A stretch of DNA of 64,000 bases from Antiquaquibacter metalliresistens. GTDB taxonomy: Bacteria; Actinomycetota; Actinomycetes; Actinomycetales; Microbacteriaceae. A model generated the notes under the pieces. It had not been told where the DNA came from. It worked only from the letters and a program-made list of their open reading frames with translations, and ran no database searches. Shown here piece after piece: positions 61,014 through 63,960 of this stretch. The first letter of the stretch is position 1. The number at the start of each line of letters is the position of its first letter. The stretch lies in assembly GCF_029211225.1 (NCBI RefSeq), contig NZ_JARGEM010000005.1, positions 186,001-250,000 of the forward strand. Reading direction: 5' to 3'. The position numbers and the translations under genes were made by a program.

Positions 61014-61961
61014 CTAGTCCTCGGCGAGCGACTCGAGCAAAGCCATGGACGGCACGAAGTACGCCGAACCGGTGACCGCGGTCGAGAAGTCGAGGATGCG
61101 ATCGTGGGCGCCTGGCGGCTCCCCGATGAACATGCGGGTGAGCATCCGTTCGATCACCGACAGGTCGGCGGCGTAGCCGATGAAGTAGGTGCCGAACTCT
61201 CCGGCACCGGGGCGCCCGAACGGCATGTTGTCGCGCAGGATGTCGTGCTCGGTGCCGTCGGGGTCGGTGATCGTCGCGAGATCCTTGTGCGAGCCGGGCG
61301 CGCCATCCAGCTCGACGTTGTCGGCCTTGGTGCGCCCGATGATGTGCTCCTGGATGCTCGTCGGCTGCGCGTTCCACGCCGCCAGGTCGTGCAGGTACTT
61401 CTGCACCACCACGTAGCTGCCGCCCTCGAATCCGGGGTCGTCGTCGATCAGGGTGACGTCGCTCATCGCCTGCCCGGTGGGGTTCTCGGTGCCGTCGACG
61501 AAACCGAGCAGATCCCGCGCATCGAAGTATCGGAAGCCCTGCACCTCGTCGACGACCGTGACGTCGGTGCCGAGCTTGTCGAGCAGCAGGCGTTCGAGCT
61601 CGAAGCACAGGTCCTCGCGCTGCGCGCGGATGTGGAAGAGCAGGTCACCGGGCGTCGACACCGCGGTGTGGGCGCGGCCGACGACGGGAGCGAAGGGATG
61701 CAGCTGCCGCGGTTTCGACGGCTGCGCGAACCGATCCCACGCCGCACTGCCGATCCCCACGATGCAGGAGAGCTGCGCCTCGAGATCGCGGAAGCCCACC
61801 GCGCGCACGAGCCCGCCGACGTCGGCGATCACGTTCTTGACCCTGGATGCTGCGTCGTCGCCCGGGCCGATCGTCACGATCAGGAACACTGCGGACCTCG
61901 TCAGCGGCGCGGCCACGCTCTGCGGATCGATGGGAACCCGGTCGCCCTGCTGTGCTGCCAT
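61014..61961 (-). CDS. Dye-decolourising (DyP-type) haem peroxidase
   Basis: 315 aa. The catalytic GxxDG motif is LLGFVDGTENPTG. The proximal haem histidine is probably in APGSHKDLATITD, and GAGEFGTYFIGYAADLSVIERML is the conserved C-terminal block. There is no Tat or Sec signal, so it is cytoplasmic or an encapsulin-type cargo; no encapsulin gene is seen nearby. The B-type (YfeX/DyPB) subclass fits the length. TACCCT is 6 nt from the ATG, a leaderless start. Confidence 0.9.
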   Translation of the reverse strand: MAAQQGDRVPIDPQSVAAPLTRSAVFLIVTIGPGDDAASRVKNVIADVGGLVRAVGFRDLEAQLSCIVGIGSAAWDRFAQPSKPRQLHPFAPVVGRAHTAVSTPGDLLFHIRAQREDLCFELERLLLDKLGTDVTVVDEVQGFRYFDARDLLGFVDGTENPTGQAMSDVTLIDDDPGFEGGSYVVVQKYLHDLAAWNAQPTSIQEHIIGRTKADNVELDGAPGSHKDLATITDPDGTEHDILRDNMPFGRPGAGEFGTYFIGYAADLSVIERMLTRMFIGEPPGAHDRILDFSTAVTGSAYFVPSMALLESLAED

Positions 61962-61967
61962 GCTGCC

Positions 61968-61973
61968 AGGGTA
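61968..61973 (-). promoter_or_regulatory. -10 hexamer, leaderless start of the DyP gene
   Basis: TACCCT, GGCAGC, ATG. Confidence 0.5.
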
Positions 61974-62011
61974 GAGCAGCACGGGTGCTGGTGTCTGCAT
62001 CGAGTCCGGCG

Positions 62012-62017
62012 TACAAT
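62012..62017 (+). promoter_or_regulatory. -10 hexamer of the tmRNA gene
   Basis: TACAAT, close to consensus. Transcription would start near 62024, just before a GCCTCC/GGAGGC hairpin (62026-62039) and the left arm of the 22-bp processing repeat. No convincing -35 is seen. Confidence 0.6.
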
Positions 62018-62047
62018 GGAAGGCTGCCTCCCCGGAGGCGTTTGACA

Positions 62048-62069
62048 ACTCAACAGCGCGATAGCGACC
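62048..62069 (+). repeat. Left arm of the inverted repeat enclosing the tmRNA
   Basis: 22 nt beginning ACTCAACA and ending AGCGACC, complementary to 62483-62504. All positions pair, counting one G-U. With the flanking TTTGACA it resembles the TTTGAGAACTCAACAG element that precedes 16S rRNA in many actinobacteria (recalled, not checked). Confidence 0.8.
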
Positions 62070-62102
62070 CGCACCACTGGCCAGTCCGGCGCTGCGAAGC
62101 AT

Positions 62103-62479
62103 GGGGATGATCGGTTTCGACATTGCCTGCAAAACTGCGAGAAGCGGGTCGAGGATGCAGCCTTATCTCGTAAACGATGGCTGCAAAACAATAACTGCCG
62201 ATTCCAAGCGCAGTGACCTTGCTCTTGCTGCCTAGCAGCAACTAGCACAACAGGTCCGTCAGTCCGGGAACGCCCCCTACCCGGCCACTGGCGTCATCAA
62301 GGGGGATTGCTGCGCGGTCGTGTCTCAGGGCCGCGCGGGACTTGCACTGAGACTGGGCCCGTCGACCTGGGTGCTCGTGGCAAAGGTCGGGGCCGAGCAG
62401 AACGCTTGTACGAGCTACGCCCGTAGAAGGCGCAGGATTACAGCAGTGGACGGGGGTTCGATTCCCCCCATCTCCACCA
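62103..62479 (+). ncRNA. ssrA: tmRNA (SsrA RNA)
   Basis: 377 nt. The 5' end GGGGATGATCGGTTTCGAC pairs with the 3' end CATCTCC-A-CCA, with encoded CCA. The T arm GGGGG-TTCGATT-CCCCC precedes it. The tag reading frame starts at 62197 and stops at TAG 62233-62235, encoding ADSKRSDLALAA, an actinobacterial-type proteolysis tag ending in LALAA. It rescues stalled ribosomes with SmpB. The mature RNA is enclosed by a 22-bp inverted repeat. Confidence 0.97.
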
Positions 62480-62482
62480 TCA

Positions 62483-62504
62483 GGTCGCTATCGCGTTGTT
62501 GAGT
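62483..62504 (+). repeat. Right arm of the inverted repeat enclosing the tmRNA
   Basis: 22 nt starting 4 nt after the tmRNA CCA end, complementary to 62048-62069. In the primary transcript the arms would bring both ends of the tmRNA together in one helix. Confidence 0.8.
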
Positions 62505-62523
62505 CGCCGCACCGAGAACGACG

Positions 62524-62557
62524 ACGGGGGCGCGCCTCCGATGAGACGCGCCCCCGT
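62524..62557. terminator. Strong bidirectional terminator hairpin
   Basis: ACGGGGGCGCG and CGCGCCCCCGT form a perfect 11-bp stem with a 12-nt loop, between the tmRNA and the convergent lipoprotein gene. No T-tract is needed for actinobacterial I-shaped terminators. Confidence 0.75.
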
Positions 62558-62573
62558 GGACGGTGCGCGATGG

Positions 62574-63056
62574 TTAGCGGCCGGCGCCCTTGAGCGTGCC
62601 GGTGACCGGGCCGGCCGGGTCGACGATGAGGCACAGGATCTCGCGATCCCCGTTCTCCCAGCTCGACTGCGTCGGGTAGTAATACGCGAAGTCGAGCACC
62701 GAGGTCTGATAGTCGACGCCGACGAACGAGTTGAACTCGGTCGTGCAGTCTGCGACGGCCTGTTCCTCGACCACGGCATCGCCGGGGAAGTCGCCGTCTT
62801 CCATGATGATCGAGGCGTAGGCCTCGGAGGCGTGAGGCTCAGCGCAGTCGACCTTCACGACATCGCTGACCTCGCCCTCGATGTCCTGATCGTTGAGGCA
62901 GTCGCCGACGGCGATCGTGAACACGTCCACGGTCTCGCCGTTCTCGCCGTTGTCGGTGCTGGTGCCGGCGCCGGGCAGCAGGCTGCAGCCGGCGAGGGCG
63001 AAGCCCGCAGCGCCGACGGCCAGAGCAGCGAGGGCTCGCTTGAACGTTGTGGTCAT
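62574..63056 (-). CDS. Septum-formation-domain lipoprotein
   Basis: 160 aa. The lipoprotein signal ends in FALAGCS (Cys24). The exported domain has the Septum_form-type pattern: IAVGDCLNDQD, VVKVDCAEPHASEAYA, VADCTTEFNSFVG, and PTQSSWENGDREILCLIVDPAGPVTGTL, with four cysteines probably forming disulfides. It is a diverged relative of the protein at 58455. AAAGAG upstream is a weak RBS, and TAGGCT (63116-63111) is its -10, giving a ~48-nt leader. A role in cell division is suggested only by the domain name. Confidence 0.8.
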   Translation of the reverse strand: MTTTFKRALAALAVGAAGFALAGCSLLPGAGTSTDNGENGETVDVFTIAVGDCLNDQDIEGEVSDVVKVDCAEPHASEAYASIIMEDGDFPGDAVVEEQAVADCTTEFNSFVGVDYQTSVLDFAYYYPTQSSWENGDREILCLIVDPAGPVTGTLKGAGR

Positions 63057-63153: not shown

Positions 63154-63960
63154 TCAATTCGGCAACGCTTCGCCCCCGGCAAGCGTCGCGAGCACACTGT
63201 CGTGCAGCACCCCGTTGGTCGCCAGTGCATTGCCGTGCCAGGGGCCGCGCTCGCCGTCGACCGAGGTGAACCGGCCTCCGGCCTCCTCGACGATCGGAAT
63301 GAGCGCCGCCATGTCGTAGGGCTGCAGATCGAACTCGCCGACCACGTCGAGCGCGCCCTCGGCGAGCAGCATGAAGCTCCACATGTCCCCGATCGCACGA
63401 GCGCGCCACACGGCCCGCGAGAGCGCGACGAGGTCGTCGAGGCGACCGGCGCCATCCCAGCCCTGAATGCTGTTGTAGCTCAGGGATGCGTCGTCCAACC
63501 GCTCGACCCCGCTCACCTTCAGCGGCCGCGCCTCCTCGCCGTCTGCCTGCCCCCACGCGCCGTGCCCGGTCGCCGCCCACCAGCGCTTGCCGAGCGCGGG
63601 AGCGCTGACGACGCCGACGATCGGTTCGCCGTCGACGGCCAACGCGATGAGGGTGCCCCAGATGGGCACGCCGCGCAGGAAGTTCGCGGTGCCGTCGATC
63701 GGGTCGATGATCCACTGCCGGTTTGAGTCGCCCTGCGTGCCGTACTCCTCGCCGAGGATCGCGTCGTGCGGGCGGGCCGATTCGATGCCGTCGCGGATGA
63801 GGCGCTCGACGGCGCGGTCGGCATCCGTCACCGGGGTGCGATCCGGTTTCGTCGTGACCTCCAGGTCGACGGCGCGGAACCGGTCGATGGAGATGTGGTC
63901 CGCGTCGGCCGCGAGGGCCAGCGCCAGGGAGAGGTCGTCGCTCGGGGTGTACTCGATCAC
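63154..63960 (-). CDS. hisN: Histidinol-phosphatase / inositol monophosphatase family (HisN-like)
   Basis: 268 aa from GTG 63960, 6 nt after TAGCGT. A Mg2+-dependent phosphatase. Metal ligands are in ILGEEYG, WIIDPIDGTANFLRG (the family signature) and DLQPYDMAALIPIVEEAGG. The RGVPIWGTLIALAVDGEP and NSIQGW stretches resemble actinobacterial HisN (histidinol-phosphate phosphatase) more than SuhB or CysQ, so HisN is preferred. Inositol-1-phosphatase activity cannot be excluded by eye. Confidence 0.82.
   Translation of the reverse strand: MIEYTPSDDLSLALALAADADHISIDRFRAVDLEVTTKPDRTPVTDADRAVERLIRDGIESARPHDAILGEEYGTQGDSNRQWIIDPIDGTANFLRGVPIWGTLIALAVDGEPIVGVVSAPALGKRWWAATGHGAWGQADGEEARPLKVSGVERLDDASLSYNSIQGWDGAGRLDDLVALSRAVWRARAIGDMWSFMLLAEGALDVVGEFDLQPYDMAALIPIVEEAGGRFTSVDGERGPWHGNALATNGVLHDSVLATLAGGEALPN

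What the first reader, a model, noticed from the sequence alone, without database searches (positions are those of the whole stretch)
62048..62504. A 22-bp inverted repeat encloses the whole tmRNA gene, like an rRNA processing stalk
Arms 62048-62069 and 62483-62504 pair at every position (one G-U). They lie 33 nt before and 4 nt after the mature tmRNA ends. The pre-tmRNA would close into a long double-stranded helix that joins both termini, the layout used by RNase III to release 16S and 23S rRNA. The left arm with its TTTGACA flank also resembles the element found before actinobacterial 16S genes. In E. coli the tmRNA ends are made by RNase P and exonucleases, so an RNase III-type stalk would be a different maturation route.
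Basis: partly seen in the sequence, partly recalled or inferred. Interest (0 to 1): 0.75.

Follow-up and report, generated by a model that had tools for sequence, protein, structure and literature searches.

The report
Ribosomal-RNA-style processing stalk around tmRNA
In one family of bacteria, the gene for tmRNA, the RNA that rescues stuck ribosomes, is wrapped in a long paired stem and a leader signal otherwise seen in front of ribosomal RNA, which suggests that tmRNA is made and trimmed by the ribosomal-RNA route.

Summary
Arms 62048-62069 and 62483-62504 pair at 22 of 22 positions (one G-U) around the tmRNA at 62103-62479. Of 114 distinct tmRNA loci of the same family, 101 carry such a stem. 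A structure-blind alignment of 106 loci pairs 76.5% of cells in register against 28-46% when slid, with 273 against 50-108 double-sided changes. Congeners already show two compensated pairs. The helix is therefore under selection. The left arm starts inside a 15-nt element, TTGANAACTCAACAG, whose only two exact copies in the genome lie before 16S rRNA and before tmRNA. In 30 of 30 actinomycete 16S loci the same element forms the left arm of the 16S leader-trailer helix. The element is wider spread than the stalk: in Streptomyces it abuts the mature tmRNA end, with no clear stalk. So it probably has a role of its own, most likely as an rrn-type boxA/boxC site for Nus factors. Best reading: pre-tmRNA here is built like pre-16S rRNA: Nus-type box, long-range stalk, RNase III cleavage, then RNase P and exonucleases. 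Cleavage and Nus binding are inferred. I found no report of this in the papers searched.

The parts
62012..62017 (+). Putative -10 promoter hexamer TACAAT; transcript start inferred about 62023-62026
   Evidence: Sequence; 96 of 106 family loci have TANNNT 15-70 nt before the box (no control run). The consensus scan found no sigma-70 pair here.
62021..62043 (+). Leader hairpin before the box (boxB-like position)
   Evidence: Fold of 62017-62047, -11.3 kcal/mol; in 106 family loci median -10.2 against -5.9 for shuffles
62042..62056 (+). rRNA-leader-type box TTGACAACTCAACAG (boxA/boxC-like)
   Evidence: Only exact matches to TTGANAACTCAACAG in the 3.07-Mb genome are here and in the 16S leader; 104 of 114 family leaders match a 16S-derived matrix at p<=0.05
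62048..62069 (+). Left arm of the leader-trailer helix
   Evidence: 22 pairs with 62483-62504; covariation
62070..62102 (+). Spacer between left arm and mature 5' end, with its own small hairpin; 5-61 nt in the 97 family loci with a fitted helix
   Evidence: Fold -9.8 kcal/mol; gap lengths
62103..62479 (+). tmRNA (ssrA), one-piece, tag ADSKRSDLALAA, CCA encoded
   Evidence: Aragorn, RF00023
62483..62504 (+). Right arm of the leader-trailer helix, 3 nt after CCA
   Evidence: As for the left arm; 3' gap of 0-3 nt in most of 97 family loci
62524..62557 (+). G+C-rich hairpin after the right arm, possible terminator (no T run)
   Evidence: Fold of 62505-62575; the terminator scan did not call it

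Best explanation
The tmRNA gene of this bacterium, and of most of its family (Microbacteriaceae, inferred from named genera with the same element), makes a precursor laid out like pre-16S rRNA. A short leader holds a hairpin and an rrn-type box (boxA/boxC-like). The box runs into a left arm that pairs, across about 410 nt, with a right arm 3 nt after the CCA. The helix (median 20 nt in the family) closes the two ends. RNase III most likely cuts it on both strands, leaving a short 5' leader for RNase P and a trailer for exonucleases. As proposed for 16S rRNA, NusA and partners bound at the box would hold the left arm until the right arm is made. Shown here: the helix, its covariation, the shared box, the matching 16S helix, presence of rnc, nusA and nusB. 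Inferred: RNase III cleavage, Nus binding, order of steps.
For: Helix and fold. Family: 97 of 106 box-bearing loci exceed 99% of shuffled controls and 83 exceed all 1060; 4 of 8 loci without the regular box also have it, so 101 of 114. Structure-blind MAFFT alignment of 106 loci: 76.5% paired in register against 28-46% slid by 1-3; cells changed on both sides 273 against 50-108. Congeners L220-L222 differ from the window at two stalk pairs below the box, both compensated. Box exact only before 16S and tmRNA, with a 2-mismatch copy before 23S. 30 of 30 16S loci pair the same element with the 16S trailer, each above its own 10 shuffles. RNase III, NusB and NusA genes present; NusA matches PDB chains 1k0r and 2asb/2atw (that these are M. 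tuberculosis NusA, the latter with RNA, is recalled). PMC6614801 (passages): boxC is part of the RNase III duplex of pre-16S and NusA is suggested to present it. PMC10250234 (passages and one section): a leader-trailer helix over 17 bp is critical for active 30S in E. coli.
Against: No RNA end data. 13 of 114 family loci have no stalk by these tests (one, L248, is borderline), yet all 13 genomes keep rnc, so the stalk is dispensable. The box occurs without a stalk in other actinomycetes, so likeness to the 16S box alone does not prove a cleavage role. In one search two further measures hardly separate the true register: pairs with any double-sided change 17 against 14-20, extra pair types 54 against 39-51. 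In an unanchored test only 46 of 74 loci passed the 99% shuffle level, and flanks swapped between genomes also score high (95% at 47) because the box is shared. In S. venezuelae lacking rnc, ssrA RNA rises and ssrA was not found as a direct target (PMC12096830, passages); Streptomyces has no clear stalk, so this bears little on it. In E. coli the 16S helix matters independently of RNase III (PMC10250234).
Confidence: 0.7

Rival explanations
1. The helix is a folding clamp and end protector, not mainly an RNase III site. It brings the two halves of the tRNA-like domain together during transcription and is trimmed by other nucleases.
For: In E. coli the effects of 16S leader-trailer mutations are much the same with and without RNase III, and the authors conclude that the helix itself is critical (PMC10250234, section). 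Some relatives have only about 10-14 pairs, short for RNase III (recalled). The two roles are compatible.
Against: Median 20 nt and 57 of 97 at 20 or more fits a two-turn RNase III substrate (recalled). A mature tmRNA must lose the arms somehow.
Confidence: 0.2
2. The box is not a Nus site but a DNA element of the promoter or an RNase P contact; its likeness to the rRNA leader is historical.
For: In Streptomyces and others it lies right at the RNase P site. In several class members the leader seems only about 10 nt long after a -10-like hexamer, too short for an antitermination signal.
Against: In the family it lies 20-76 nt from the mature end in 101 of the 104 leaders with a significant box and downstream of the likely start; no promoter pair was called in the window region. 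Exact copies in the genome lie before 16S and tmRNA only.
Confidence: 0.15
3. Chance repeat, or terminal repeats of a mobile element at a tmRNA attachment site.
For: tmRNA genes are frequent integration sites (abstract of PMC11915505, seen in the listing).
Against: Conserved position with compensatory changes over the family loci; 22 pairs against a maximum of 16 in 2000 shuffles.
Confidence: 0.01

Closest known systems
Leader-trailer helix of pre-16S and pre-23S rRNA (RNase III processing stalk)
   Same: Long-range helix enclosing a stable RNA, left arm containing the same box (16S: TTGAGAACTCAACAG; tmRNA: TTGACAACTCAACAG), same genome
   Different: Encloses tmRNA, whose ends are tRNA-like and made by RNase P; arms sit 33 and 3 nt from the mature ends, whereas the 16S box lies 126-294 nt before 16S and its partner 91-220 nt after it; arm sequences beyond the box differ
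rrn nut site (boxB-boxA-boxC) of E. coli and M. tuberculosis
   Same: Hairpin, then boxA/boxC-like stretch, then pairing arm; boxC inside the RNase III duplex (PMC6614801, passages)
   Different: On tmRNA; Nus binding untested; the limits of actinobacterial boxA and boxC were not verified here
E. coli pre-tmRNA (ssrA) maturation
   Same: RNase P at the 5' end; RNase III or E named for the 3' end in a review (PMC3968760, passages)
   Different: E. coli has no stalk by the same test and, by reading, a short leader without the box
boxA regulation of suhB and other genes in gamma-proteobacteria (PMC5725501)
   Same: A Nus box outside rRNA (passages and one section)
   Different: Those are mRNA leaders; ssrA does not occur in its main text and it is not among the papers holding boxA, NusB and tmRNA
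Permuted (two-piece) and intron-bearing tmRNA genes
   Same: Variant tmRNA precursors with extra processing (PMC3968760, PMC11915505, passages)
   Different: Here the gene is standard one-piece; only the flanks differ

Membership tests
rRNA-type leader-trailer helix processed by RNase III | Complementary arms enclosing a stable RNA | tested here: met
rRNA-type leader-trailer helix processed by RNase III | Pairing kept by compensatory change in relatives | tested here: met
   (two of the measures do not separate the register)
rRNA-type leader-trailer helix processed by RNase III | Left arm carries the box of the 16S helix | tested here: met
rRNA-type leader-trailer helix processed by RNase III | RNase III gene in the genome | tested here: met
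   TIGR02191, 222.9 bits against cut-off 166.25; also in all 13 stalkless relatives, so not discriminating
rRNA-type leader-trailer helix processed by RNase III | Staggered double-strand cuts in the arms | not testable with these tools
   Needs RNA end mapping
rrn nut site (Nus antitermination) | Sequence match to the genome's rRNA leader box | tested here: met
   exact in 16S and tmRNA leaders only
rrn nut site (Nus antitermination) | Hairpin 5' of the box | tested here: inconclusive
   More stable than shuffles on average; 38% of 106 loci below the 5% shuffle level
rrn nut site (Nus antitermination) | NusB/NusE or NusA binding to the leader RNA | not testable with these tools
   nusB and nusA genes present; binding unknown
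tmRNA (RF00023) | Covariance model match over the cut-off | tested here: met
   170.2 bits, positions 1-374 of 374

The most novel reading that the evidence does not exclude
tmRNA in Microbacteriaceae is made by the ribosomal-RNA transcription machine: a modified RNA polymerase carrying Nus factors assembles on the rrn-type box, holds the left arm, and closes the stalk when the right arm emerges, so that RNase III releases tmRNA as it releases 16S rRNA. Rescue RNA and ribosomes would then be produced and matured under one control. The box without stalk in Streptomyces and other actinomycetes would be the older state, in which Nus factors act on tmRNA transcription alone.
Probability: 0.35. Interest if true: 0.82.

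Novelty: new variant of a known kind. Interest (0 to 1): 0.66.

Why it matters
tmRNA rescues stalled ribosomes. A shared box and a shared stalk layout with 16S rRNA suggest that a bacterial family ties its ribosome-rescue RNA to the ribosome production line. The family offers natural controls: relatives without the stalk (13 of 114) and other actinomycetes with the box but no clear stalk. It also gives a small, non-ribosomal test RNA for the open question of how Nus factors help distant rRNA ends to find each other.

Tried and rejected
Unanchored helix test with 100-nt and 70-nt flanks: only 46 of 74 loci passed the 99% shuffle level (61 the 95% level); swapped flanks scored high because the box is shared. 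I then used a box-anchored test and a structure-blind alignment.

Mutual information at fixed anchors (92 loci): the two expected antidiagonals rank first but weakly (mean excess pairing 0.045 and 0.033), and most single top pairs are off them; length differences are the likely cause.

Stalk outside the family: 4 of 46 loci in other families of the order (one, L140, is a palindrome and probably chance), 0 of 45 in other orders of the class, 0 of 42 in other classes. Among named loci with the box at the mature end, nearly all Streptomyces, 5 of 46 passed the same rule with scores of 30-36 and right arms 29-37 nt after the CCA, unlike the family; I do not count these as the same stalk.

Box outside the class with the 16S matrix: 5 of 44 at p<=0.05, near chance.

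Stalk loss explained by rnc loss: rejected, 13 of 13 stalkless genomes keep rnc.

Internal promoter at TTGACA: the promoter scan found none at 61900-62700.

Papers: no report of a tmRNA stalk or a tmRNA boxA in searches (no hits; listings). Passages were seen of PMC12096830, PMC3848588, PMC10250234 (also one section), PMC5676007, PMC5725501 (also one section), PMC11915505, PMC5522395, PMC3386247, PMC9032294, PMC3968760, PMC6614801 and PMC12781872; no paper was read whole. The library lacks most subscription journals.

Full report
WHAT IS THERE. The tmRNA gene lies at 62103-62479 on the + strand. Its flanks hold ACTCAACAGCGCGATAGCGACC at 62048-62069 and GGTCGCTATCGCGTTGTTGAGT at 62483-62504, which pair at 22 of 22 positions with one G-U. 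The gaps are 33 nt on the left and 3 nt on the right. In 2000 shuffles of the flanks the longest helix was 16. A fold of the likely transcript 62023-62557 forms all 22 pairs with probability 0.87-1.0.

THE HELIX IS SELECTED. I compared tmRNA flanks from 114 distinct loci of the same family (loci; one identical copy dropped). 106 carry a recognisable box. Anchored at the box, 97 of 106 have a helix above 99% of controls with shuffled right flanks, 86 above 99.9% and 83 above the maximum of 1060 controls. Of the 8 without the regular box, 4 have a 21-24 nt helix above 100 shuffles and 4 have none. So 101 of 114 have the stalk. Its length has a median of 20 nt, with 57 of 97 at 20 nt or more. The right arm starts 0-3 nt after the CCA in most of the 97, while the left arm ends 5-61 nt before the mature 5' end. 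Seven of the 97 have a right arm more than 12 nt from the CCA, some of which may be chance.

COVARIATION. With helices fitted per locus, so that high pairing is partly by construction, pairs 1-12 counted from the tmRNA side are formed in 96-100% of 97 loci and pairs 13-16 in 88-93%, with G-C, C-G, A-T and T-A all in use at each of these pairs. In close comparisons 886 changes kept pairing by changing both sides, 290 kept it with one side, 141 broke it with one side and 17 with both; these counts are not independent events. To avoid fitting, I aligned 106 whole loci with MAFFT without any structure and mapped the window's 22 pairs: 76.5% of 2206 cells pair, against 28-46% with the partner slid by 1-3; 273 cells are changed on both sides against 50-108. 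Two other measures hardly differ: pairs with any such change 17 against 14-20, extra pair types 54 against 39-51. A subset of 64 gives 66.4% against 25-52%, and the four loci of the window's genus 92.9% against 24-51%. The three congeners L220-L222 read GACAACGACC/GGTCGTTGTC where the window reads GATAGCGACC/GGTCGCTATC: two pairs changed, both compensated.

THE BOX. The left arm begins inside TTGACAACTCAACAG (62042-62056). In the whole 3.07-Mb genome TTGANAACTCAACAG occurs exactly twice: before 16S rRNA and here. With two mismatches there are three more: one about 140 nt before 23S rRNA and two elsewhere; the reversed control pattern gave two. In 30 of 30 16S loci (the window's and 29 of the class, several of them close kin) the box reads TTGAGAACTCAACAG (27) or a one-letter variant (3), and its best helix with the 420-nt trailer is 15-32 nt long and includes ACTCAA; each exceeds its own 10 trailer shuffles and 29 of 30 exceed all 300. 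So the element is itself the left arm of the 16S leader-trailer helix. In the window's tmRNA it is also paired; across the family the helix takes in on average 4.6 of 9 box letters, and 17 of 97 take it in from its first or second letter. The box is thus conserved where it is not paired, which points to a second role.

DISTRIBUTION. A matrix from the 16S boxes finds the box (p<=0.05 against shuffles of the same leader) in 104 of 114 family leaders, 31 of 46 of other families in the order, 17 of 46 of other orders in the class and 5 of 44 of other classes. Among the significant boxes outside the family, 15 of 31 (order) and 10 of 17 (class) end exactly at the mature 5' end. A stalk is found in 4 of 46, 0 of 45 and 0 of 42 of those groups. 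A pattern scan of named genomes for the box 1-31 nt before the tmRNA start gave 113 stretches. Aragorn found tmRNA in 106: 53 with a stalk over 40 shuffles, 47 with the box abutting the mature end, 4 with a gap but no clear stalk, 2 without the box in the leader. The 53 are mostly Microbacteriaceae (Herbiconiux, Agreia, Curtobacterium, Agrococcus, Cryobacterium, Humibacter, Leifsonia, Frigoribacterium, Subtercola and others) plus some Knoellia, Phycicoccus, Janibacter and Nostocoides, most of these with shorter stems (Knoellia is Intrasporangiaceae; Herbiconiux Microbacteriaceae; the other families are recalled). The 47 are Streptomyces or Streptomycetaceae but for one uncultured Micrococcales record; 5 of the 46 that could be tested passed the stalk rule, weakly and with the right arm far from the CCA. 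The scan requires the box, so it says nothing about genomes without it. E. coli has no stalk by the same test and, by reading, no box.

LEADER ANATOMY. Upstream of the box is a likely -10 hexamer (TACAAT, 62012-62017), though the consensus scan calls no promoter, and a hairpin (62021-62043) of a kind more stable than shuffles on average in the family. The order hairpin, box, pairing arm is that of an rrn nut site. A G+C-rich hairpin at 62524-62557 may end the transcript; it has no T run and was not called as a terminator.

MECHANISM. For M. tuberculosis rRNA, NusA binds boxC, boxC is part of the RNase III duplex that releases pre-16S, and NusA has been suggested to present one arm to the other (PMC6614801, passages, citing Beuth 2005; that paper was not held; that its RNA is close to the box seen here is recalled). 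E. coli work shows that a leader-trailer helix over 17 bp is critical for active 30S subunits, independently of RNase III, and that boxA has a 2- to 3-fold effect (PMC10250234). The window's genome has RNase III, NusB and NusA, the last closely similar to NusA of solved structures 1k0r and 2asb/2atw. I therefore think that the pre-tmRNA stalk is closed with the help of Nus factors at the box, cut by RNase III and finished by RNase P and exonucleases. Only the anatomy is shown.

LIMITS. No RNA data. 13 of 114 relatives lack the stalk and all 13 keep RNase III. In Streptomyces venezuelae ssrA RNA rises without RNase III, and ssrA was not among direct targets (PMC12096830, passages). RNase III action on E. 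coli precursor 10Sa RNA was reported in 1990 (seen as a reference entry only), so RNase III in tmRNA maturation is not new in itself; the stalk and the shared rRNA box are what I could not find in print. That the window's family is Microbacteriaceae is inferred from the named genera that share the element; the tools gave no name for the genome.

Noticed in passing
L116, L117, L128, L157, L159 (tmRNA leaders of other Actinomycetota classes): Leaders read CTTTGANAA or similar before the mature tmRNA start (for example TTCTTTGAAAACC in L116, GTTCTTTGACAACC in L117), like boxA without the boxC part. The box may be older than the class Actinomycetes.
   Followed up: no
L200, L207, L213, L214, L219 (other orders of the class): The tmRNA leader seems only about 10 nt long after a -10-like hexamer and reads ACAACTGCACA up to the mature end, a shared stretch too short for an antitermination leader.
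   Followed up: no
L073 (G062), L235 and L236 (G186, G133), L257 (G010), L026 (G027): Family members without a stalk, several with small genomes; in L073 the box abuts the mature end as in Streptomyces. All keep RNase III.
   Followed up: partly
G075, G229, G289: Two tmRNA matches over the cut-off in one genome; in G075 they start 1.4 kb apart.
   Followed up: no
window 61014-61961 (-), 62574-63056 (-), 63154-63960 (-): Neighbours are a Dyp-type peroxidase, a protein that looks like a lipoprotein with no NCBIfam match, and a histidinol-phosphatase HisN; none of these is smpB.
   Followed up: partly
L001 3336-3350: A two-mismatch copy of the box (TTGAGAACTACACAG) lies about 140 nt before 23S rRNA, where rrn operons have a second nut site.
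   Followed up: partly
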